NCBI RefSeq assembly: GCF_001887355.1
Contig: NZ_MPIN01000013.1
Coordinates: forward strand, 130,409-194,408
Length of the DNA: 64,000 nucleotides
Source of the DNA: Cystobacter ferrugineus
Lineage (GTDB): Bacteria > Myxococcota > Myxococcia > Myxococcales > Myxococcaceae
Reading direction: 5' to 3'
The notes under the pieces were generated by a model that made no database searches, was not told where the DNA came from, and saw only the letters and a program-made list of their open reading frames with translations. Position numbers and translations under genes: made by a program. Numbering within the stretch: the first letter of the stretch is position 1; every line of letters starts with the position of its first letter. This document shows, piece after piece, positions 6,424-16,014 of the stretch.

Positions 6424-6663
6424 GTGCACACCATCTTCGTCATGATCAAGTGTGAGCTGGGGCAGACGTACAAGACCGCGGCGATGATCGCCGACCAGGT
6501 CGACGAGGCCGCGGAGGTCTACTCCACCTCGGGCGGGTACGATCTCCTGGCCAAGTTCCACCTCGACAAGGCCCAGGACATCGGCCGCTTCGTCACCGAG
6601 CGCATCCAGACGATGCCCGGCATCAAGGACACCTACACCATCACCACCTTCAGCGCCTTCTAG
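6424..6663 (+). CDS. Stand-alone Lrp/AsnC ligand-binding (RAM) domain protein
   Basis: A 79-residue protein consisting only of the alpha/beta effector domain that Lrp/AsnC regulators carry after their DNA-binding domain; no helix-turn-helix is present. Recognisable features are the first strand (HTIFVMIKCELG), the helix TAAMIADQ, the strand VYSTSGGYDLLAKF and the final strand TYTITTFSAF. Such single-domain proteins form oligomers that bind amino acids and may act on full Lrp proteins. I chose the GTG at 6424 because it gives the complete first strand; an ATG at 6442 would cut it. Confidence 0.75.
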   Translation: MHTIFVMIKCELGQTYKTAAMIADQVDEAAEVYSTSGGYDLLAKFHLDKAQDIGRFVTERIQTMPGIKDTYTITTFSAF

Positions 6664-6717: not shown

Positions 6718-9078
6718 CTAGATGCCCGGCGCCGCGTCTTCCTGGGCGGCGAGACCGTCACCACCCCGCGAGGGCTGGCTCCCGTCGCCATGGGCGTGGG
6801 CCGCGTGGCCGTGCAGCGGGAGGCCGAGGGGCGCCCACACGCCCGTCTTCGGCTCGAACTCCAGCACCTCCGAGTGGCCCACGTCGTAGAACCAGGCGTG
6901 CAGCCGCACCTCGCCGGCGTCGTACTTGCGGCGCAGCACGGGGTTGGTGAGCGCGTTGTCCAACTGCACCAGGGCGTTGGCCTTGGCCGCGTCCTCGGGG
7001 GTGGCGTTGGGGGGCAGCTTGCCGAGCACGGGCGTGGCCTCGGCCAGCCAGTTGACCACCCCGGGCAGCCCCTCGGGCTTGTCCTTGCTCAAGAGCGCCT
7101 TCATGGCGCCGCAGGCCGAGTGGCCGCAGACGATGACGTCCGACACGCCCAGCACCTCCAGCGCGTACTCGATGGCGCTGCTCACCGCGGGGGACAGGGG
7201 AGAATTGTCCAGGGGCACGAGGTTGCCCACGTTGCGCACGATGAACAGCTCACCGGGATCCGTGGAGGTGATGAGGCTCGGGCTGATGCGGCTGTCGGCG
7301 CAGGTGATGAGCAGCGTGTGTGGCGTCTGGCCCTTGGCGAGCCGGCCGAACAGCTCCCCGTAACGAGGGCGGCGTGCGCGGCGGAAGCGCTCCACGCCGT
7401 GCACCAGACGATCCCTCGGTGAGGGCTGCGTCGCGATCTGGAGGCCCTGGAGGCGGGCCACCACGTCGGACTCGGTGAGGGCGAAGAGCGCCTCGAAGCG
7501 CGAGTCGTCGCCGGCCTGGCGCAACAGCAGGCGCTGCACCTCGGGCAGCGCGCCCTGGATGACGAGCGGGTGCTGGGCATCCAGCATCTCGCGCACGAGC
7601 TGCGTCATCAGCTCCGCGCCCGACACGTCCATGGCCGTCACGTCCGAGAAGTCGAACACCATGCCGCGCCCGGGCTCCAGCGCGTGGGCCTCGTTGCGCA
7701 GGGTCTCGAGCTTCGCGGTGCTCAGGAAGGTGATGGGGCCGGTGAGCAGGAAGCGGTAGGGCCCGGCCGAGTCCGTGTGGACGATTCCCGCCTGACCCCG
7801 GCCCAGACGCACGACGGCGATGGCCAGCGCCACGATGATGCCCGCCTGCACGCCGACGATGAAGTCCAGCAGCACGACGGACGCGAAGGTGACGACGAAC
7901 ACCGTCCCTTCCACGCGCGACACCTTCCAGAGCCCCATCAGATCCCGCGGGCGCAGCATGCGCACCGCCAGGGCCATCAGCACGCCCACCAGGGCCACGA
8001 TGGGGATGTGGGCGAGCACGGGCACCAGCAGCAGCACCGCGCCCAGGACGAGGAGCGCGTGGATCAAGGTGGCGCGCCGGGTGCGGCCCCCGGCCTTCGC
8101 GTTGAGCGCGGCGCGCGCGTAGGCACCCGCCGCCGGGATGCCACCGAGCAGGGACACGGCCATGTTGCTCAGTCCCAGGCCCACGAGGTCCTGATCCGGA
8201 TCATGCGTGGGACGCGGGGACAGCTTGGCCACCACGCCGCCAGCCGTCACCGCCGTCAGGGACGACAGGGCGTAGACGATGACCGCGGTGCTCATGAGCT
8301 GACCCCAGCTCGCCGTGGACAGGCTCGGCATGGCGGGCAGGGGCAGCGCGTGGGGCAGCGCGCCGAGCGTCGGCACGTCCAGGCCCAGGCCCAGGACGAT
8401 GGCGCTGGTGACGGTGACGGCGATGAGGGGCGAGGGCAGCTTGGGCGCCACCCGGGGCAACACCAGGGTGATGGCCAGCGTGAGCGCGGTGAGGGCGAGC
8501 GCGACGGGCTGGGTCTGGTGCATCAACTGGCCCAGGTGCGACAGGACGTCGAACACGTGGTTCTGATCCGGGGGCGGCAGGCCCAGGGCGCGCGGGAGCT
8601 GCCAGACGAGGAGGATGGCGCCGATGCCGGCGGTGAAGCCCGACACCACCGGCATGGGCACCAGGCGGATGGCGCGGCCGAGCCCGAGCAGACCCGTGAG
8701 CACCTGCAGCACGCCCACCACCAGGCCAATGGTGAGCAGGCCTCGCAGGCCGTACTGCTGCACGGCCGAGGCGATGAGCACCGCCATGGCGGCGGTCGGG
8801 CCCGTCACCAGCAGGGGCGTTCCGCCAAACAGGGAACCGACGACGCCCGCGACGATGGCCGTCACCAGGGCGATTTCCGGGGACACGCCCGAGGCCAGAC
8901 CGATGGCCAGGGACAGGGGGACGGCCACGCTGGCCACCTGCAAGGCGGCCAGGACATCTTCCTTGAGGTCGCGGGAGGAGAAGAGGGCCTTCCATTCTGG
9001 AAGGAGCTGGCGCAGGCCGAGGCCCGTGCGCACGGAGGGCAGGTGAGGACGGAGCCGGGAAAGGAAATTTGCACTCAT
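6718..9078 (-). CDS. SulP anion transporter fused to a STAS domain and a beta carbonic anhydrase
   Basis: A 786-residue membrane protein in three parts. Residues about 1-420 form the SulP transporter core with many transmembrane helices. A STAS domain follows (about 435-545). The C-terminal part, about 570-770, is a beta-class carbonic anhydrase whose zinc site is intact: Cys593 and Asp595-Arg597 in CADSR, then His653 and Cys656 in CGHSACG. The enzyme would interconvert CO2 and bicarbonate on the cytoplasmic face of a transporter that may carry bicarbonate or sulfate. SulP-carbonic anhydrase fusions are known in bacteria and suggest bicarbonate handling. The ATG at 9078 starts directly before the cytosolic N-terminus; longer starts only add a low-complexity stretch. 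Confidence 0.88.
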   Translation of the reverse strand: MSANFLSRLRPHLPSVRTGLGLRQLLPEWKALFSSRDLKEDVLAALQVASVAVPLSLAIGLASGVSPEIALVTAIVAGVVGSLFGGTPLLVTGPTAAMAVLIASAVQQYGLRGLLTIGLVVGVLQVLTGLLGLGRAIRLVPMPVVSGFTAGIGAILLVWQLPRALGLPPPDQNHVFDVLSHLGQLMHQTQPVALALTALTLAITLVLPRVAPKLPSPLIAVTVTSAIVLGLGLDVPTLGALPHALPLPAMPSLSTASWGQLMSTAVIVYALSSLTAVTAGGVVAKLSPRPTHDPDQDLVGLGLSNMAVSLLGGIPAAGAYARAALNAKAGGRTRRATLIHALLVLGAVLLLVPVLAHIPIVALVGVLMALAVRMLRPRDLMGLWKVSRVEGTVFVVTFASVVLLDFIVGVQAGIIVALAIAVVRLGRGQAGIVHTDSAGPYRFLLTGPITFLSTAKLETLRNEAHALEPGRGMVFDFSDVTAMDVSGAELMTQLVREMLDAQHPLVIQGALPEVQRLLLRQAGDDSRFEALFALTESDVVARLQGLQIATQPSPRDRLVHGVERFRRARRPRYGELFGRLAKGQTPHTLLITCADSRISPSLITSTDPGELFIVRNVGNLVPLDNSPLSPAVSSAIEYALEVLGVSDVIVCGHSACGAMKALLSKDKPEGLPGVVNWLAEATPVLGKLPPNATPEDAAKANALVQLDNALTNPVLRRKYDAGEVRLHAWFYDVGHSEVLEFEPKTGVWAPLGLPLHGHAAHAHGDGSQPSRGGDGLAAQEDAAPGI

Positions 9079-9214
9079 AGCGGAAAAAGTGAATTCGATG
9101 GCACGGCGACGCCATGGCACCCGGGCAACGGCATGCCCGGGGACCACGAAGTCCCATGGAGTTGAAGAGAGGGAGACGCTTCTGTCGCACCGAGGGGATG
9201 GGCGCCCGAGGCAC

Positions 9215-9574
9215 CTACCCCATGCGTTGCTCATCGTCCGGTGGCACGCGGGGCGGCATCAGCGCCGCACGCCAACGTGCCAGGGCGGTATGCGTCTCGT
9301 GGGACGGGAGAACCGCGGCGACCCGGCGCGCGGGCCGGGGCTCGTGCCGTGGCTGCATCCTCCACCGTCTCGCCGCCGCGGCCGTCCAGCGCTCCAGGCT
9401 ACCCGAACGCAGTCCGGGCAGCTCCGCCTTCTCGACCAGTGTCGGGCGAGGTGGGTCCTCGACCTCCAGGGCCTGGGTGCACCGCTGCCAGAGCCCCGCC
9501 TGGACGAGCACGGAGGGCTGCTGGAGCGACAGCAGGGCGCAGAGCCAAAGCTGGAGGAACGGAATCCGACGCAA
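9215..9574 (-). CDS. Small secreted protein of unknown function
   Basis: A 119-residue protein that I do not recognise. The N-terminus MRRIPFLQLWLCALLSLQQ is a typical signal peptide: two Arg, then a Leu-rich core. The third codon position is nearly always G or C across the whole frame on this strand, as in neighbouring genes, which supports real coding. The start is a TTG at 9574 with a weak ribosome site, so the exact start is uncertain. The mature part is Arg-, Ala- and Pro-rich. It lies 136 bases upstream of the SulP gene and is divergent from the kinase gene. Confidence 0.5.
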   Translation of the reverse strand: MRRIPFLQLWLCALLSLQQPSVLVQAGLWQRCTQALEVEDPPRPTLVEKAELPGLRSGSLERWTAAAARRWRMQPRHEPRPARRVAAVLPSHETHTALARWRAALMPPRVPPDDEQRMG

Positions 9575-9735
9575 GGTGCCTAATCTAACCTGTTTGGGTG
9601 ACGCGGTGCATCCCTAATTCAAATTCATTTGAGCCCATGCAACTTCGGCGTGAAGTGCTGGATTCCAGGTTCATACTGACAAATTTACCAGTCAAGTGAA
9701 ACGAGACAGATGTGTAAAAACGGACGCTCCCTCGT

Positions 9736-9741
9736 TATAGT
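9736..9741 (+). promoter_or_regulatory. Candidate -10 box for the PhnD-domain kinase gene
   Basis: The gap 9575-9828 is AT-rich in its middle (9600-9745). TATAGT at 9736-9741 matches the -10 consensus at five of six bases; the best -35 at 17 bases, TGTAAA (9713-9718), is poor, so activation may be needed. A strong AGGAGG (9813-9818) precedes the start codon. Confidence 0.35.
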
Positions 9742-9828
9742 AGGATGCGACGTGGAAGGTCACCCCGGAGGGCCGCGAAGGGTGTATCCGTGGACTCCAC
9801 CGGCGATCCTTCAGGAGGACCGAACAAC

Positions 9829-12048
9829 GTGATGCCGTCGCCCAGGCCCATTCGCTTCCTGCTCTACCCGGCGCTCGGGGAGGTGCGGGAGCACGTTCGC
9901 GTCGAGCTGTTCGGCCGGACCTTGTCCGAGCAATTGGGACGTCCCGTGGTGATGGAGCTGTCGTCCTCCTATGAGTTGCTGGAGGCCGAGCTGCAACGGG
10001 GACAGGTGGACATGGTGTGGGCCACGGCCGAGCAATGTGACGCCTACGAGCCGCGGGCTCGGGCGGTGCTGCGGGCGGTGCGCTCGGGGAGCTGGCACTA
10101 CCATGCGGCCCTGGTGTGCCGCGCGGATGCGCCGCTCACGCTCGAGACGCTGCGGGGCCAGCGCGCCGCGTGGGTGGCTCCTCACTCCACGGGGGGACAC
10201 CTGCTGCCCGTGCGCTTCCTGGCCCAGCGGGGCCTGTCCCCGGACTCGCTCTTCCGCGAGCAGTGCTTCGTGGGCACCTACCGCCGGGCGCTCCAGGCGG
10301 TGCTCGCGGGCGAGGCGGACGTGGCGTCCGTGTTCGCCAGCCACTCCAACGAGCACGCCATCCGCGCCACCCTGGGGGCCTTCCTCGGCCCCGAGCATGC
10401 GCGGCTCGTTCCGTTCCTCTACACCGAGCCCGTCCTGGCCGATGGCATCATCCTCACCCCGCGGCTGTCCGAGGCGGAGGCCCAGGCGATCGTCGCCGTG
10501 CTCACGCGGATGAACGTCGATGGCTCGGGCCTGGAGATGTTGATGGGGCCCTTCCGGGTGGAGGGCTTCGTCCTTCCGTCCGAGGCGGAGCGCTCGCCCA
10601 CCGCGAGCCGGCCGATGCTCGGCGCCGAGTACCTCGTGGCGGAGCTGGACGCGCGGGAGCGCTGCCACCGGGTGTGGGCGCCCGCGGGCCGGGCCTTCGG
10701 CCGGGACATCACCGGCGCCGACGGGCGCACGCTGCCGGAGCTGCTGGGTCAGGAGGCGAGCGATCCCCTGCTGTCCCTGGCCCGCACGGTGCGCCAGCGC
10801 GGCCTGGGCGGACGGTTGGACTACCGGCTGGACGTGGGTGGGGAGCAGCGCTGGTACGTGGCGGAAATCACCCCCTGCGTTTCCCAGGAAGGCGCGGCCG
10901 GGGCCCACCTCGGGCTGCTGGTGCGCGACGTCTCGGGAATGCGCGCCCTGGAAGAGCCCATCTACCGCCTGGCCTCCTTTCCTCTGCTGCATCCCGAGCC
11001 TCTGCTGGAACTGAGCCAGCAAGGCGAGCTGCGCTACGCCAACGCGGCCACGTACTCGGCCTTCCCGGAGCTGCTGGAGCAGCAGGCGCAGCACCCGATC
11101 ATCCAGGCCGCGCTGCAGTGGGCCTGGCGTGACGCGTCCGCGGGCGAGCCCATGCCCACGGTGCAGCTTCGCGGCCGCGACTGGGAGCTCACGGTGTTGC
11201 GGATGAGCGATCCCCCCGGCCTGCGGATGTTCGCGCGCGACGTGACGCTGCGCAAGCAGATGGAGGCGCGGCTGCTCCAGGCGGATCGGCTCTCGGCGCT
11301 GGGCTCGCTGGCGGCGGCGGTGGGGCACGAGATGAACAACCCGCTGGCCTTCATGCTGGCCAACCTCTCCTTCGCGCGCGAGGAGCTGGAGCGGCTCGGC
11401 CAGTTGCCCCGCCTGCGCGGCGAGGCGGGGCAGGCGTTGGACGACGTGCTGGAGGCCCTGTCCGAGACGGTGCAGGGCGCGCTGCGCCTCAAGCACATCG
11501 TGCAGGACCTGCGCACGCTCTCACGCAAGCCGCCGGAGCACCGGGCGCGCGTGGACGTGCGGCCGGTGCTGGACAACGCGCTGAAGCTGGTGCGCGGCGA
11601 GCTGGTGGCCCGGGCGCGGCTGGAGCGCGACTTCCACGAGGTGCCGCCCGTGGACGCGGACGAGGCCCGGCTCAGCCAGCTCTTCCTCAACCTGCTGCTC
11701 AACGCGGTGCAGGCCATGGACGTGGAGAACTGCGCGCGCAACGTGCTGCGCGTGGCCGTCTACACGGGTGAGGAAGGCGAGGTGGTGGTGGAGGTCCAGG
11801 ACTCGGGCCGGGGCCTGCCCCCCGAGGCGCTCTCGCGCATCTTCGAGCCCGTCGTCACCGCGCGCGCCCCGCACACCGGGCTGGGCCTGTCGGTGAGTCA
11901 CGCCATCGTCACCAGCCTGGGCGGCACGCTGCGCGCCGAGAGCCACGAGGGCCGCGGCACGCTGCTCACCCTCACGCTGCCCGAGGCCGGAGAACAGCCC
12001 TGGCCCCGCTCGGAACCAGACGCCTCCCTGGCGCTGCTCGCCGGGTAG
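9829..12048 (+). CDS. Soluble histidine kinase with a PhnD-like substrate-binding domain as sensor
   Basis: A 739-residue orphan kinase. Residues about 5-260 resemble a periplasmic phosphonate/phosphate-binding protein (PhnD fold): strand IRFLLYP, ELEAELQRGQVDMVWAT, and a second lobe VGTYRRALQAVLAGEADVAS. A PAS-like middle region follows (about 290-490), then HisKA with GHEMNNP (phosphoacceptor His500), N-box near 621 and the DSGRGLP and GLGLS ATP-lid motifs. No signal peptide or transmembrane helix is visible, so the binding-protein domain should sit in the cytoplasm. The GTG at 9829 is 10 bases after AGGAGG; the ATG at 9832 is equally possible. No response regulator gene adjoins it. Confidence 0.82.
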   Translation: MMPSPRPIRFLLYPALGEVREHVRVELFGRTLSEQLGRPVVMELSSSYELLEAELQRGQVDMVWATAEQCDAYEPRARAVLRAVRSGSWHYHAALVCRADAPLTLETLRGQRAAWVAPHSTGGHLLPVRFLAQRGLSPDSLFREQCFVGTYRRALQAVLAGEADVASVFASHSNEHAIRATLGAFLGPEHARLVPFLYTEPVLADGIILTPRLSEAEAQAIVAVLTRMNVDGSGLEMLMGPFRVEGFVLPSEAERSPTASRPMLGAEYLVAELDARERCHRVWAPAGRAFGRDITGADGRTLPELLGQEASDPLLSLARTVRQRGLGGRLDYRLDVGGEQRWYVAEITPCVSQEGAAGAHLGLLVRDVSGMRALEEPIYRLASFPLLHPEPLLELSQQGELRYANAATYSAFPELLEQQAQHPIIQAALQWAWRDASAGEPMPTVQLRGRDWELTVLRMSDPPGLRMFARDVTLRKQMEARLLQADRLSALGSLAAAVGHEMNNPLAFMLANLSFAREELERLGQLPRLRGEAGQALDDVLEALSETVQGALRLKHIVQDLRTLSRKPPEHRARVDVRPVLDNALKLVRGELVARARLERDFHEVPPVDADEARLSQLFLNLLLNAVQAMDVENCARNVLRVAVYTGEEGEVVVEVQDSGRGLPPEALSRIFEPVVTARAPHTGLGLSVSHAIVTSLGGTLRAESHEGRGTLLTLTLPEAGEQPWPRSEPDASLALLAG

Positions 12049-12807: not shown

Positions 12808-13938
12808 TCACGGGACGAGTGAGGCACGGACTTCGTCGAGGTCTCCGAAGACATAGCGGCCCCGCCGCCGATCCTGGCCCAGCCAGCGTTGGATGAGCGC
12901 GAGGTAGGCCTTGGCCTCGGGCGGGCGGCCGGGTTGGAAGACGAGCTTCACGTGGTTGATCCGCCGCAGGAAGACGGGGAGGGCGTGGGGGCCCAGTGCC
13001 GCGGACAAGCTCCGCAGGTGAGCGGGAAGGGCCTCGGGGCGCGAGCGCAGGTGGAGATGACCCACCCAGTCCAGGAGCGCCCGCCGCTTGGTGGGCAGGC
13101 ACAGGCCCCGCTGCTCGAGCACCTCGAGCAGCGCCGACCAGCGCGCGGTGTCCGCCTCGTGCAGGCTCTCCGCCAGATGGCACTCCACGCCCAGGCGGGG
13201 CTGGACGGTGCCGCCCACATCCAGGCTCAGTGCCAACCGCTCCGCGCGAGGCGCCACCGCTGACAGCAGCGGCTCCCACTCGGCGGGCGTTCCCGGCCAG
13301 CCGGCGCGCTCGAGGTAGCCGGGCAGGGTGTCCAGCGTCAGGCCGTGCAGGCACAGCCGCACCCCCTCGAAGCGGCGCGAGAACATGGCTCCCACGGCCG
13401 ACACCTGGCCTCCGGACGGCAGCGCCTCCAGGCTGGCGACCACCCGCTCCCGGATGGCGGGAGCCAGGGGCTCTCCCCAGAGCAGGGCGAGTGCTTCCTC
13501 CATGACCTCCAGGTCGCGCGTCGCTCCCCGCTCGTACTCAATGAAGAAGGAAGGGATGGGCACCTGCTCGGGCGTCCCCTCGACGTCGAACTCCAGGAAG
13601 ATGTCACCAATCTCCCGTGCGAGCCGAGAGCCCGGCTCGTCCCAGCGCGCGCCGAAGCGCCGCAGGCGCTCCCAGACGGGGTGGGTGAAGCGCGACAGCT
13701 CGAATCCGGGGTCTCCCCGTCCAGCGAGCACCGCGCGGCTGCCATCCGCGGCGAGGAGCCGCACGCCCAGATCCGCCAGTGCCTGGGGCTGACCCAGCCG
13801 GCACTCGAAGCCGGAGGCCGACGCGGGCGGGAGCTGCCGGGCGATCCGCTGGAGATTCCCGAACGCCTCGGGCGAGATGAGCTCGGGTGACAGGTGCGGC
13901 GCGGCGAGTCTCAGGTACGTATCCAATGCATCGATCAT
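12808..13938 (-). CDS. Unknown 376-residue protein of the leader-peptide/toroid locus
   Basis: I do not recognise this family with certainty. The protein is soluble, without signal peptide, and shows alternating helices and paired strands: VRLCLHGLTLDTLPGYL, LALSLDVGGTVQPRLGVECHL, and near the C-terminus INHVKLVFQPGRPPEAKAYL. The spaced strand pairs, the K-L-V-F and E-A-K-A-Y blocks and the size (about 370) recall ABBA-type aromatic prenyltransferases, but this is only a structural impression. The ATG at 13938 follows GAGGGAGGGGGCCC. It lies downstream of the small peptide gene, beyond a strong terminator, so it would be expressed by read-through or from its own weak promoter. Confidence 0.55.
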   Translation of the reverse strand: MIDALDTYLRLAAPHLSPELISPEAFGNLQRIARQLPPASASGFECRLGQPQALADLGVRLLAADGSRAVLAGRGDPGFELSRFTHPVWERLRRFGARWDEPGSRLAREIGDIFLEFDVEGTPEQVPIPSFFIEYERGATRDLEVMEEALALLWGEPLAPAIRERVVASLEALPSGGQVSAVGAMFSRRFEGVRLCLHGLTLDTLPGYLERAGWPGTPAEWEPLLSAVAPRAERLALSLDVGGTVQPRLGVECHLAESLHEADTARWSALLEVLEQRGLCLPTKRRALLDWVGHLHLRSRPEALPAHLRSLSAALGPHALPVFLRRINHVKLVFQPGRPPEAKAYLALIQRWLGQDRRRGRYVFGDLDEVRASLVP

Positions 13939-14042: not shown

Positions 14043-14165
14043 TTACTGCCAGGCCTGCGTGTTGCTCAATTCCTGTGCCTCGCCGGAGATGAGATCATCC
14101 AGCGCTTCGTCGCTCAGCTCGGTGAGATTGGCAGGCTGCTGCTCGGAGAGGGTCTCGTTGCTCAT
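14043..14165 (-). CDS. Candidate RiPP precursor: 40-residue acidic leader-like peptide
   Basis: A very short gene with a full set of signals: promoter, GAGG seven bases before the ATG at 14165, and an intrinsic terminator. The 40-residue product has nine acidic and no basic residues and no cysteine. Residues 14-28, LTELSDEALDDLISG, look like the helical leader end of ribosomal peptide precursors (compare the common L-S-D-E-x-L-D-x-V-x-G-G pattern). This would leave an 12-residue tail rich in Gln, Ser, Thr with one Trp (ends TQAWQ). It lies between a cyclase-like gene and an unknown enzyme-sized gene on the same strand. A longer GTG start at 14225 is possible but less likely. It could instead be a small regulatory protein. 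Confidence 0.6.
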   Translation of the reverse strand: MSNETLSEQQPANLTELSDEALDDLISGEAQELSNTQAWQ

Positions 14166-14267
14166 GGCATTGCCTCGCTGGGGGGGTAGTTGTCCTGGAT
14201 TGGGGATGAATGTCTGTCCAGGCACGCTCCCGGCGGTCAGTCATTCCTTCCGTCGAAAGCGATTGGA

Positions 14268-14414: not shown

Positions 14415-15488
14415 TCATCCGGGGCGTGGCCCCTCGAGGCAATCCGCCAGGAGCGCCACCACGGTGGCGGTGGTGAAGAGCCGGTTGCGATCCGTGAGCA
14501 CGGGCAACAGGAGGCAGCCCTGGGGATCCTCCCAGGGCGCGTGTTCCTGGGGGCGAGGCATCCGCATGAGGGGGGCGCTGTCCCAGTCCCCCTCGGGCCG
14601 CTGGGTGCGCACCAACCATTGGAGGCCAGAGCGCAGCGCGGCGCCGGAGGGCCCGGGCTCGAGCCGCAGCGTGGCGAGGGCGAGCGCGGTGTCGAACGCC
14701 GTGGACGCGCCCCCGATGCCGTTGCCCCAGCCTCCATCCTCCCGCTGGGTGCCCAACGTCCAGCGCACCGCGCGGGCCACCGCCCCGGACGTGTCCCCCT
14801 CGAGCTGGAGCAGCTCCGCCGCGTGGCGGGTGGTGTACGTCCGGCCATGCCACCAATACGCCTCCCAGAAGCCCTCGGGTGACTGCTGTTGGCGCACCCG
14901 GCGGGCACAGGCCTCGAGCAGGGGCCGGTGGCGCGGCTCTCCCACGGCGTGCAGCACCCGTCCGGCCAGGGCGCTGACGCACAGGTGCACGTCACACCAG
15001 CTACTGCCCGGATAGCTGGCCCAACCGTCCAGGGAGGGCCGCTCGGCGGGGCGGTACGTGCGGAAGCCCTCCTCGGCTTCGTCCCAGTAGCGCAACAACT
15101 GCACGCAGGCCTCGGCGAGCGCCGCCTCGTCGGAGGGCTCGCCGCGGGTGTGCGAGAGGAAGTGCACCACGTTGGCGGTGGAGTCGGCGTCGGCGGGGGT
15201 GGCCAGGCTGAAGCCCCAGCCCCCCTCCTGATGTGCATGTGCCTTCAGCCAGTCACGCGCCCGCCGCAACACGGCTGGGTCCGCGCCTACCCGGGCCAAT
15301 GCCTGTCCGACGTAGGCGGTGACCCACTGTGAGCTGATGACGTCCCGGTCTCCCACCACGAACCGGAAGCGGAAATCCAACCAGCGCCCATCCGCCTTCT
15401 GGGTCTGTTCCAGGGCGCGCCGGGCGCGCGCGAGCGACTCGATGACCGTGGCTTCCAGTTCTGGCTGGTACTGCGGAATGGCTTCCAT
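14415..15488 (-). CDS. Squalene-cyclase/prenyltransferase-repeat toroid protein with a DADS motif
   Basis: A 357-residue soluble alpha/alpha-toroid protein. Repeats with Gly-Trp-Gly are clear: QEGGWGF (87-93), SPEGFWEAYWW, EDGGWGNGIGG and EGDWDSA. The segment 100-106 reads DADSTAN, which lines up with the DxDDTA acid motif of class II terpene cyclases except that the last Asp is Ser. The protein is about half the length of squalene-hopene cyclase, so only one toroid is present. The ATG at 15488 has GGGGGAGG six bases upstream. Its role is unknown. Being next to a leader-like peptide suggests peptide or terpenoid tailoring, and LanC cyclases share the toroid fold. Confidence 0.72.
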   Translation of the reverse strand: MEAIPQYQPELEATVIESLARARRALEQTQKADGRWLDFRFRFVVGDRDVISSQWVTAYVGQALARVGADPAVLRRARDWLKAHAHQEGGWGFSLATPADADSTANVVHFLSHTRGEPSDEAALAEACVQLLRYWDEAEEGFRTYRPAERPSLDGWASYPGSSWCDVHLCVSALAGRVLHAVGEPRHRPLLEACARRVRQQQSPEGFWEAYWWHGRTYTTRHAAELLQLEGDTSGAVARAVRWTLGTQREDGGWGNGIGGASTAFDTALALATLRLEPGPSGAALRSGLQWLVRTQRPEGDWDSAPLMRMPRPQEHAPWEDPQGCLLLPVLTDRNRLFTTATVVALLADCLEGPRPG

Positions 15489-15564
15489 CCGCGTCCTCCC
15501 CCCAGGGTGGCTTCCTCCCTCCAGTATGACTGGCTTCACGTGGCGCCGCGATCTTTTCGATCGG

Positions 15565-16014
15565 TCAGACGCGCTTGACCGCTCCAGCCGTCTGTAGCGG
15601 CACCCCCATGGCCTCCGCGATGAGTCGCAGGTCATGCGCACTGATGGAGAACAGCCCGAAGCGAAGCCGGTAGCCCCAGTTGCGCGCCCCCGCCGAGAAG
15701 TCGAGGGACTCGAGCAGGGGCTGGATCGGCGCGACGCGTGCCGGAAGCCAGGTCACCTCCCGGCGGAATGGATGGAATCCCCCGCCCATGTCGAAGACAT
15801 AGGGCTCTCCGGGCTTCACGATGCCCAGGGCCGTGAAGGCCTGGAGCCTGTCCTTGCCCTGGAACGAGACGGTTGGTGAGTAGTAGATGACCCGGTCCCC
15901 CGGCTGGAGGCGGCGCAGCGGCGCGGCCTTGCCGTGGCAGATCTGCATGAAGCCCGCCTCGCGACCGCGCAGGACGTGCTCGGCCGAGGCCACCGCGATC
16001 CAATTCCGGCTCAT
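15565..16014 (-). CDS. EVE domain protein
   Basis: A 149-residue EVE (YTH/PUA-like) domain protein of the UPF0310 type, a fold that binds modified nucleic-acid bases. Seen are the opening [11 protein letters not shown], the [25 protein letters not shown] block with the conserved G-D-x-x-x-Y-Y-S/T turn, and the closing [18 protein letters not shown]. The ATG at 16014 overlaps the stop of the VOC gene (ATGA), so the two are translationally coupled. The biological substrate is not known. Confidence 0.83.

What the first reader, a model, noticed from the sequence alone, without database searches (positions are those of the whole stretch)
9829..12048. Cytoplasmic histidine kinase with a periplasmic-binding-protein fold as sensor
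The PhnD-like domain is normally outside the membrane. Here there is no signal peptide or membrane helix, so the protein appears to sense a cytosolic phosphate, phosphonate or similar ligand. There is no adjacent response regulator.
Basis: inference. Interest (0 to 1): 0.55.

Follow-up and report, generated by a model that had tools for sequence, protein, structure and literature searches.

The report
Cytoplasmic kinase with PhnD-type sensor
A predicted soluble bacterial signalling kinase carries, inside the cell, a ligand-binding domain of a kind that normally works outside the cell membrane, and this domain belongs to a little-described family of such inside-the-cell binding proteins in myxobacteria whose ligand is unknown.

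Summary
Window 9829-12048 (+) encodes a 739-residue protein: PhnD-type binding domain (PF12974, E 1.9e-35), two PAS-like domains, HisKA, HATPase_c. The GTG start has a strong ribosome site. Hydropathy shows no leader or membrane helix in it or in 45 other kinase-clade and stand-alone sequences. The immediate neighbours are not response regulators.

The clade occurs in 38 of 147 class genomes (8 genera), up to three copies each. Its sensor is closest to leaderless stand-alone PhnD-like proteins of Myxococcota, often in a TtcA-TerB-PhnD cluster. They share an altered pocket: oxyanion-binding Tyr, Tyr and Ser mostly remain, the ligand His is usually Tyr, and an Asp aligned with the amine-contacting Asp205 of E. 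coli PhnD is invariant in 79 of 79 rows.

So 'cytosolic sensor kinase' is well supported; 'senses phosphate or phosphonate' only partly, and the ligand is open. PhnD-sensor kinases (TtrS) and cytosolic sensors built from solute-binding domains are known in general. This is a new variant of a known kind, of moderate interest. Localisation, ligand and partner regulator need experiments.

The parts
9813..9818 (+). ribosome-binding site AGGAGG before the GTG start
   Evidence: sequence; SD-like motif in 37 of 42 distinct fused-clade rows, 0.24 of random stretches
9829..12048 (+). gene for the 739-aa cytosolic PhnD-type sensor histidine kinase (stop codon included)
9844..10593 (+). PhnD-type (type II periplasmic-binding-protein) sensor domain, about residues 6-255
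   Evidence: Pfam PF12974; AF2 pLDDT 92.1; ArrX Z 24.3
10441..10443 (+). Asp205, aligned with the 2-AEP cap Asp205 of E. coli PhnD; invariant in 79 of 79 leaderless rows
10630..10977 (+). first PAS-like domain, about residues 268-383
   Evidence: predicted topology; PAS_4 E 0.0023, below cut-off, at the matching place of relative L042
10996..11244 (+). second PAS-like domain, about residues 390-472
   Evidence: PAS_4 E 0.025, below cut-off; topology
11245..11520 (+). coiled coil and HisKA phosphoacceptor helices, about residues 473-564
11326..11328 (+). phosphoacceptor His500 (motif GHEMNNPL)
   Evidence: invariant in the 30-row alignment; motif position
11659..11988 (+). HATPase_c ATP-binding domain, about residues 611-720
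   Evidence: Pfam; DSGRG and TGLGLS boxes

Best explanation
A soluble, cytosolic sensor histidine kinase. SHOWN (sequence, prediction): the N-terminal 255 residues form a complete two-lobed PhnD-type binding domain with no leader or membrane anchor, followed by two PAS-like domains, a coiled coil with phosphoacceptor His500, and an intact ATPase domain. SHOWN: the sensor is most similar to leaderless stand-alone PhnD-like proteins of Myxococcota and shares most of their altered pocket. INFERRED: a small cytosolic ligand, probably an anion or zwitterion contacted by Tyr48, Tyr91, Ser120, Tyr151 and Asp205, closes the flytrap; the closure is passed through the PAS domains and coiled coil of a homodimer and changes autophosphorylation of His500. 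INFERRED: the phosphoryl group goes to a response regulator encoded elsewhere, as is common for orphan myxobacterial kinases (recalled).
For: Domains above cut-off and kinase boxes. No leader or membrane helix by hydropathy in 46 distinct sequences, controls 2.29-2.42. Conserved start and SD. Sensor model pLDDT 92.1, closest to signalling PBPs: ArrX Z 24.3, XAC2383 22.2, AioX 21.9; transport PBPs PtxB 21.3, PhnD 21.1 (rows within 1 are tied). Pocket columns more conserved than the rest: ten contact columns, 28 kinase rows 0.45 against 0.95 bits, 122 of 10,000 random draws as low; 51 stand-alone rows 3 of 10,000. 38 of 147 class genomes carry the clade; the 28 kinase sensors form one clade (SH-aLRT 100). 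H, G1 and G2 boxes in 38 of 40 distinct rows of 400 aa or more.
Against: No localisation or binding data. Hydropathy is not SignalP/TMHMM, and it separates less cleanly at the edge: the highest leaderless value is 1.62, the exported homologue L158 has 1.82 and L153, called exported by eye, only 1.20 in the part tested. In the kinase rows two of ten contact columns (169, 171) vary strongly. L045 is a clade member whose gene ends before any kinase domain, so the sensor may also work without it. Partner regulator unknown. The full-length model has pTM 0.50, so the domain arrangement is not established. PAS domains fall below Pfam cut-offs.
Confidence: 0.7

Rival explanations
1. The sensor reports intracellular phosphate, phosphite or a phosphonate: a cytosolic counterpart of PhnD/PtxB.
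For: PhnD family; Tyr48, Tyr91, Ser120, Thr121 and Asp205 align with E. coli PhnD Y47, Y93, S127, T128, D205.
Against: The ligand His (H157 PhnD, H192 AioX) is Tyr in 28 of 28 kinase rows and 47 of 51 stand-alone rows; the third Ser is Gly/Ala in 28 of 28 and 47 of 51; no kinase row has Glu at the Glu177 column. In HtxB an aromatic residue (Phe158) at the His place blocks the third oxygen site (PMC5700983, section 7), so a Tyr there may favour a two-oxygen group such as a carboxylate or phosphinate over phosphate. No phosphorus gene among the immediate neighbours.
Confidence: 0.25
2. The PBP domain has lost small-ligand binding and is a protein-protein module, for instance bound by the stand-alone leaderless PhnD-like protein or by another regulator.
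For: Two of ten contact columns vary strongly in the kinase rows; the stand-alone homologue is present in the same genome.
Against: Pocket columns as a set are more conserved than the domain; Tyr91, Tyr151 and Asp205 are invariant in the 28 kinase rows.
Confidence: 0.2
3. The kinase is part of metal or siderophore homeostasis; the transferrin-like fold would bind a metal-anion complex.
For: Paralogues L038, L055, L044 are followed by a PKHD-type hydroxylase (Pfam in all three) and TonB, PepSY and TonB-receptor genes (Pfam in L038; receptor also in L044; the rest by likeness); transferrins match the fold at Z about 16-17.
Against: Linkage seen in three genomes of the window's own genus (the fourth was not read), for one paralogue; other members have other neighbours. 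Shared fold shows no function; no transferrin iron ligands were checked.
Confidence: 0.12
4. The protein is exported or membrane-bound through an unrecognised route, so the sensor faces the periplasm as in TtrS.
For: The characterised PhnD-type sensors in the papers read are part of a membrane-bound kinase (TtrS, PMC5408782) or are periplasmic PBPs (AioX, PMC5908839).
Against: No hydrophobic segment by hydropathy in 46 distinct sequences; only 10 codons between stop and first strand in L030; the kinase domain must be cytosolic to reach ATP (established knowledge).
Confidence: 0.04

Closest known systems
TtrS / ThsS (tetrathionate and thiosulfate sensor kinases)
   Same: PF12974 sensor N-terminal to HisKA and HATPase_c in one chain; PMC5408782 (section 5, passages read) found 838 such UniProt kinases, 154 after clustering
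   Different: TtrS is described there as membrane-bound with a periplasmic sensing domain and pairs with TtrR; ours has no leader or membrane helix, has PAS-like domains and no adjacent regulator. NCBIfam tetrathio_HK 81.8 bits against cut-off 750, best stretch in the kinase part
AioX / ArrX (arsenic-oxyanion signalling PBPs)
   Same: closest solved sequences and folds of the sensor domain; Tyr and Ser oxyanion contacts shared
   Different: separate periplasmic proteins; Cys106 (AioX) is Thr66, His192 is Tyr151, Asp210 is Phe169 here (PMC5908839 abstract, passages and section 10)
E. coli PhnD / PtxB / HtxB transport PBPs
   Same: same Pfam family and fold; Y47, Y93, S127, T128, D205 matched; HtxB too has an aromatic residue in place of the ligand His (PMC5700983, section 7)
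   Different: exported, work with ABC transporters; His157, Ser129 and Glu177 not kept here (PMC5700983 sections 7 part 1 and 10; PMC5908839 section 10)
XAC2383 of Xanthomonas citri (signalling PBP, solved with ATP)
   Same: fold match Z 22.1-22.2
   Different: a separate protein; its periplasmic signalling role is recalled, not from a call
Stand-alone leaderless PhnD-like proteins of Myxococcota (L036 and relatives); NCBIfam Rv1680-family SBP-like
   Same: no leader by hydropathy in 56 stand-alone rows; shared pocket signature with invariant Asp205 and near-invariant Cys70
   Different: about 270 aa, no kinase; Rv1680 model matched only weakly by L036 (22.5 bits, cut-off 400)
EspA/EspC-type myxobacterial kinases
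   Same: best NCBIfam kinase-core scores (230 and 216 bits)
   Different: far below cut-offs 1200/1400; sensor part not in the matched stretch

Membership tests
Histidine kinase (HisKA/HATPase_c) | phosphoacceptor His box, N/G1/G2 boxes, curated models above cut-off | tested here: met
PF12974 PhnD-type binding domain | Pfam model above gathering score and type II PBP fold | tested here: met
   122.9 bits against 27; Z 24.3, rmsd 2.5, 242 aligned to ArrX
TtrS-type sensor kinase | PF12974-HisKA-HATPase_c order in one chain | tested here: met
TtrS-type sensor kinase | membrane anchor and periplasmic sensor | tested here: not met
   hydropathy only; start
TtrS-type sensor kinase | NCBIfam equivalog NF040750 cut-off | tested here: not met
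   81.8 bits against 750
TtrS-type sensor kinase | adjacent cognate response regulator | tested here: not met
   window neighbours; but a regulator lies two genes downstream in L043, L047, L049
AioX/ArrX arsenic-oxyanion PBPs | Cys106 and His192 in the pocket | tested here: not met
   Thr66 in 28 of 28 and Tyr151 in 28 of 28 kinase rows
Exported solute-binding protein | signal peptide | tested here: not met
   hydropathy and gene start; no SignalP run
Phosphonate/phosphite-binding PhnD | oxyanion contact set Y, Y, S, T, S, H of E. coli PhnD and PtxB (Prochlorococcus PhnD and HtxB each depart at one place, PMC5700983) | tested here: not met
   4 of 6 kept in the window protein
Phosphonate/phosphite-binding PhnD | measured binding of a phosphonate or phosphite | not testable with these tools
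   needs a binding assay
PAS domain | curated PAS model above cut-off | tested here: inconclusive
   PAS_4 E 0.025 and 0.0023 in L042, both below cut-off; topology fits

The most novel reading that the evidence does not exclude
Myxococcota hold an old family of leaderless PhnD-type proteins that are intracellular receptors for a so far unknown cytosolic ligand, with a rebuilt pocket (ligand His to Tyr, invariant Asp205, near-invariant Cys70). One lineage fused this receptor to a kinase, giving soluble flytrap kinases that read an intracellular metabolite; the same sensor also sits on a second, different kinase core (L041, L042).
Probability: 0.4. Interest if true: 0.6.

Novelty: new variant of a known kind. 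Interest (0 to 1): 0.4.

Why it matters
PhnD-type domains are generally treated as extracytoplasmic and are named as phosphonate transporter parts by family models. A conserved clade that keeps the pocket but not the export signal suggests an unrecognised intracellular metabolite sensor in social bacteria. A soluble protein with a well-predicted 255-residue sensor should be easy to express, so the ligand question is directly testable, and soluble flytrap kinases would be convenient for building intracellular biosensors.

Tried and rejected
Longer start with a signal peptide: rejected. Chance or wrong-frame ORF: rejected, the 29 relatives aligned are 41-93% identical to the window protein. Arsenite sensor like AioX: rejected, the Cys106 position is Thr in 28 of 28 kinase rows and Pro in 51 of 51 stand-alone rows. 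Neighbour-based ligand guess: the window-type locus shares desaturase (named by eye) and AsnC-domain neighbours with L051/L061 (in the window a SulP gene lies between), the other loci read differ, so no ligand follows. One search read all loci on one strand only and is not used; replace it. Literature searches for a cytosolic PhnD-sensor kinase (for pocket papers) gave none on this clade; the library holds open-licence PMC papers only, and the supplementary list of PMC5408782, which may contain such proteins, could not be read. A first pocket-conservation test used eight columns and left out the two variable contacts; it was repeated with all ten, and those numbers are the ones given. Rows dropped before the tree and the pocket counts: of 38 distinct kinase sensors of 700 aa or more, those 93% or more identical to a kept one (28 left); clade members under 700 aa (L014, L017, L034, L045; also the cut loci L056, L068); of 56 stand-alone rows, those over 0.85 alike to a kept one (51 left). 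The tree's split between leaderless and exported rows has SH-aLRT 77 only, and long branches were flagged.

Full report
Observation. The ORF at window 9829-12048 (+) is real. Pfam finds PF12974 (E 1.9e-35), HisKA (6.2e-8) and HATPase_c (1.1e-22) above their cut-offs, and a sub-threshold PAS_4 (0.025). The AlphaFold model of the whole protein (30 rows, pLDDT 76.8, pTM 0.50) shows a PBP domain, two PAS-like folds, a long coiled coil with the HisKA helices, and an ATPase domain. The kinase boxes are complete: GHEMNNPL with His500, DSGRG, TGLGLS.

Start and localisation. The GTG at 9829 is preceded by AGGAGG. In 42 distinct rows of the same clade I took the start codon nearest the aligned start: 33 GTG, 6 TTG, 3 ATG; 37 of 42 have a four-base SD-like motif upstream, against 0.24 of random stretches of the same loci. 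The alternative ATG at 9745 adds no hydrophobic stretch. In L030 the in-frame stop lies three codons upstream of the start, which leaves no room for a leader. Over 46 distinct sequences (42 of the kinase clade, window included, and 4 stand-alone proteins) the highest 19-residue hydropathy is 0.79-1.62; the 1.62 is L039, inside the PBP domain. Three control proteins with a leader or membrane helix score 2.29-2.42. All 56 stand-alone rows, with up to 40 codons upstream, stay at or below 1.51 in the N-terminal part, while exported homologues give 1.82 (L158), 2.16 (L159) and 2.37 (L037); L153, which I class as exported by eye, gives only 1.20 in the part tested. A cytosolic protein is therefore the straightforward prediction; SignalP/TMHMM and experiments were not available.

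Distribution. In 147 genomes of the class, 38 have a match of this clade (best E at or below 4e-63; the other genomes 8e-39 or weaker). They are all the genomes examined of 8 genera of one family: g1 4, g3 6, g5 2, g6 16, g7 7, g8 1, g10 1, g20 1. Of the 27 genomes of g19, 26 show matches in open frames of 207-324 aa only, and G102 a 167-aa frame. Several genomes hold two copies, and G044 three. Named records of the clade are Corallococcus, Archangium, Citreicoccus and Hyalangium, besides Myxococcaceae MAGs. Among 40 distinct rows of 400 aa or more, 38 have the H, G1 and G2 boxes; L014 runs off its contig and L045 ends before the kinase. L041 and L042 carry the same PBP-PAS sensor on a visibly different kinase core.

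A leaderless family. The same genome has a stand-alone 273-aa PhnD-like protein without a leader (L036:8042-8863), after a TerB-type gene and a PP-loop ATPase gene, TtcA-like by recall of its motif. Stand-alone proteins of this kind were read in seven numbered families (f1, f2, f7, f10, f13, f24, f25) and in Paraliomyxa. Of 56 distinct stand-alone loci, 36 have both TtcA-like and TerB-like genes (found by motif) within three genes; of the 20 others, 4 have one of the two, 3 lie at contig edges, 4 are further copies in family f1 and 9 come from other families. A phylum search with the family profile matched 150 of 195 genomes at E 1e-8 or better, but these matches include exported homologues such as L158 and L159, so 150 is not a count of leaderless proteins. 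In a tree of 85 sensor sequences the 28 kinase sensors form one clade (SH-aLRT 100) next to stand-alone rows L111 and L160 (98); the branch between all leaderless rows and six exported ones has only 77, and long branches were flagged. So a single fusion is well supported; that it arose from an already leaderless protein is likely, not proven. The window genome also has an exported PhnD-type protein (L037:8749-9729, with a leader) beside a HATPase_c protein and a receiver-STAS protein, an arrangement reminiscent of AioX.

Pocket. Against the PDB the sensor profile is closest to AioX (1.4e-21) and ArrX (1.2e-17), ahead of PtxB, HtxB and PhnD. The sensor model made with 46 leaderless rows has pLDDT 92.1 and pTM 0.87; VIA-align gives ArrX Z 24.3 (rmsd 2.5, 242 aligned), XAC2383 22.2, AioX 21.9, PtxB 21.3, E. 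coli PhnD 21.1. Contact residues were taken from PMC5908839 (abstract, passages, section 10) and PMC5700983 (abstract, section 7 part 1, section 10); numbering was checked by matching all ten named AioX residues and ten E. coli ones. PhnD Y47, G65, Y93, S127, T128, S129, N175, E177, D205 align with Y48, T66, Y91, S120, T121, G122, F169, S171, D205; AioX H192 aligns with Y151, and by the paper's AioX-PhnD correspondence H157 does too. Asp205 is invariant in 28 of 28 kinase and 51 of 51 stand-alone rows; Tyr91 in 28 and 49; Tyr151 in 28 and 47; Cys70 in 28 and 49; Thr121 in 25 and only 6. Ten contact columns are more conserved than the domain (kinase rows 0.45 against 0.95 bits, 122 of 10,000 draws as low; stand-alone 0.62 against 1.49, 3 of 10,000), although columns 169 and 171 vary. 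The pocket is therefore kept, but rebuilt: four of the six oxyanion contacts remain in the window protein, the ligand His is gone, and an acidic residue is fixed where E. coli PhnD holds the amine of 2-AEP. In HtxB a Phe at the His place blocks a third ligand oxygen (PMC5700983, section 7), so the Tyr here may point to a two-oxygen group (inference).

Context. In the window the gene stands between oppositely oriented genes. In L043, L047 and L049 it is followed after 7 bases by a second kinase (membrane helix shown for L049) and an OmpR-type regulator; in L054 and L042, of the same two genera, it is not. The pair's orthologues in the window's genome (58% and 77% identical) lie elsewhere with no PhnD-type kinase beside them. 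That regulator is a candidate partner, no more. Paralogues in three of the four genomes of the window's genus (the fourth was not read) precede a PKHD hydroxylase and TonB-type uptake genes.

Known or new. Kinases with PF12974 sensors are known: PMC5408782 (section 5 and passages read) filtered 838 of them by domain order and describes TtrS as membrane-bound with a periplasmic sensor; the passages read do not mention a soluble subgroup. PMC11293645 (passages) repeats the PhnD-like sensor of TtrS; PMC4618731 (one passage) reports a PF12974 sensing domain in two Azospirillum brasilense strains. PMC9602780 (passages) states in general that solute-binding Pfam domains also occur as sensors in cytosolic signalling proteins and in cytosolic single-domain proteins. 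So the principle is known; this clade, its leaderless relatives and their common pocket were not found in the searches made. Verdict: new variant of a known kind, interest 0.4.

Noticed in passing
window 14046-14225 (-), with 12811-13938 (-) and 14418-15641 (-); L051:11702-11896: A 60-aa peptide with a conserved LTELSDEALDDLISG stretch, also in L051, beside a squalene-cyclase-like protein and a 376-aa protein with no Pfam or NCBIfam match; looks like a peptide-natural-product precursor.
   Followed up: partly
window 6721-9234 (-): SulP anion transporter with STAS domain fused to a carbonic anhydrase domain (Pro_CA).
   Followed up: no
window 6424-6663 (+): 79-aa stand-alone Lrp/AsnC ligand-binding domain, next to the kinase also in L051 and L061.
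   Followed up: no
L036:6356-8863 and many relatives: Conserved TtcA-like, TerB-like, leaderless PhnD cluster; both neighbours within three genes in 36 of 56 stand-alone loci; function unknown.
   Followed up: partly
L041:7762-9993 and L042:7060-9399: Same PBP-PAS sensor joined to a visibly different kinase core.
   Followed up: no
L165:4025-4801 and 9609-10103: A second, partial copy of the stand-alone PhnD-like gene about 4.8 kb downstream of the first.
   Followed up: no
L045:5890-7350: Clade member with the sensor and PAS-like part whose reading frame ends before any kinase domain.
   Followed up: no
L038:1255-8873; L055; L044: Paralogous kinase gene upstream of a PKHD-type hydroxylase and TonB, PepSY and TonB-receptor genes.
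   Followed up: partly
L111:2973-4783: In Paraliomyxa the leaderless PhnD-like gene directly follows an FHA-PilZ protein gene.
   Followed up: no
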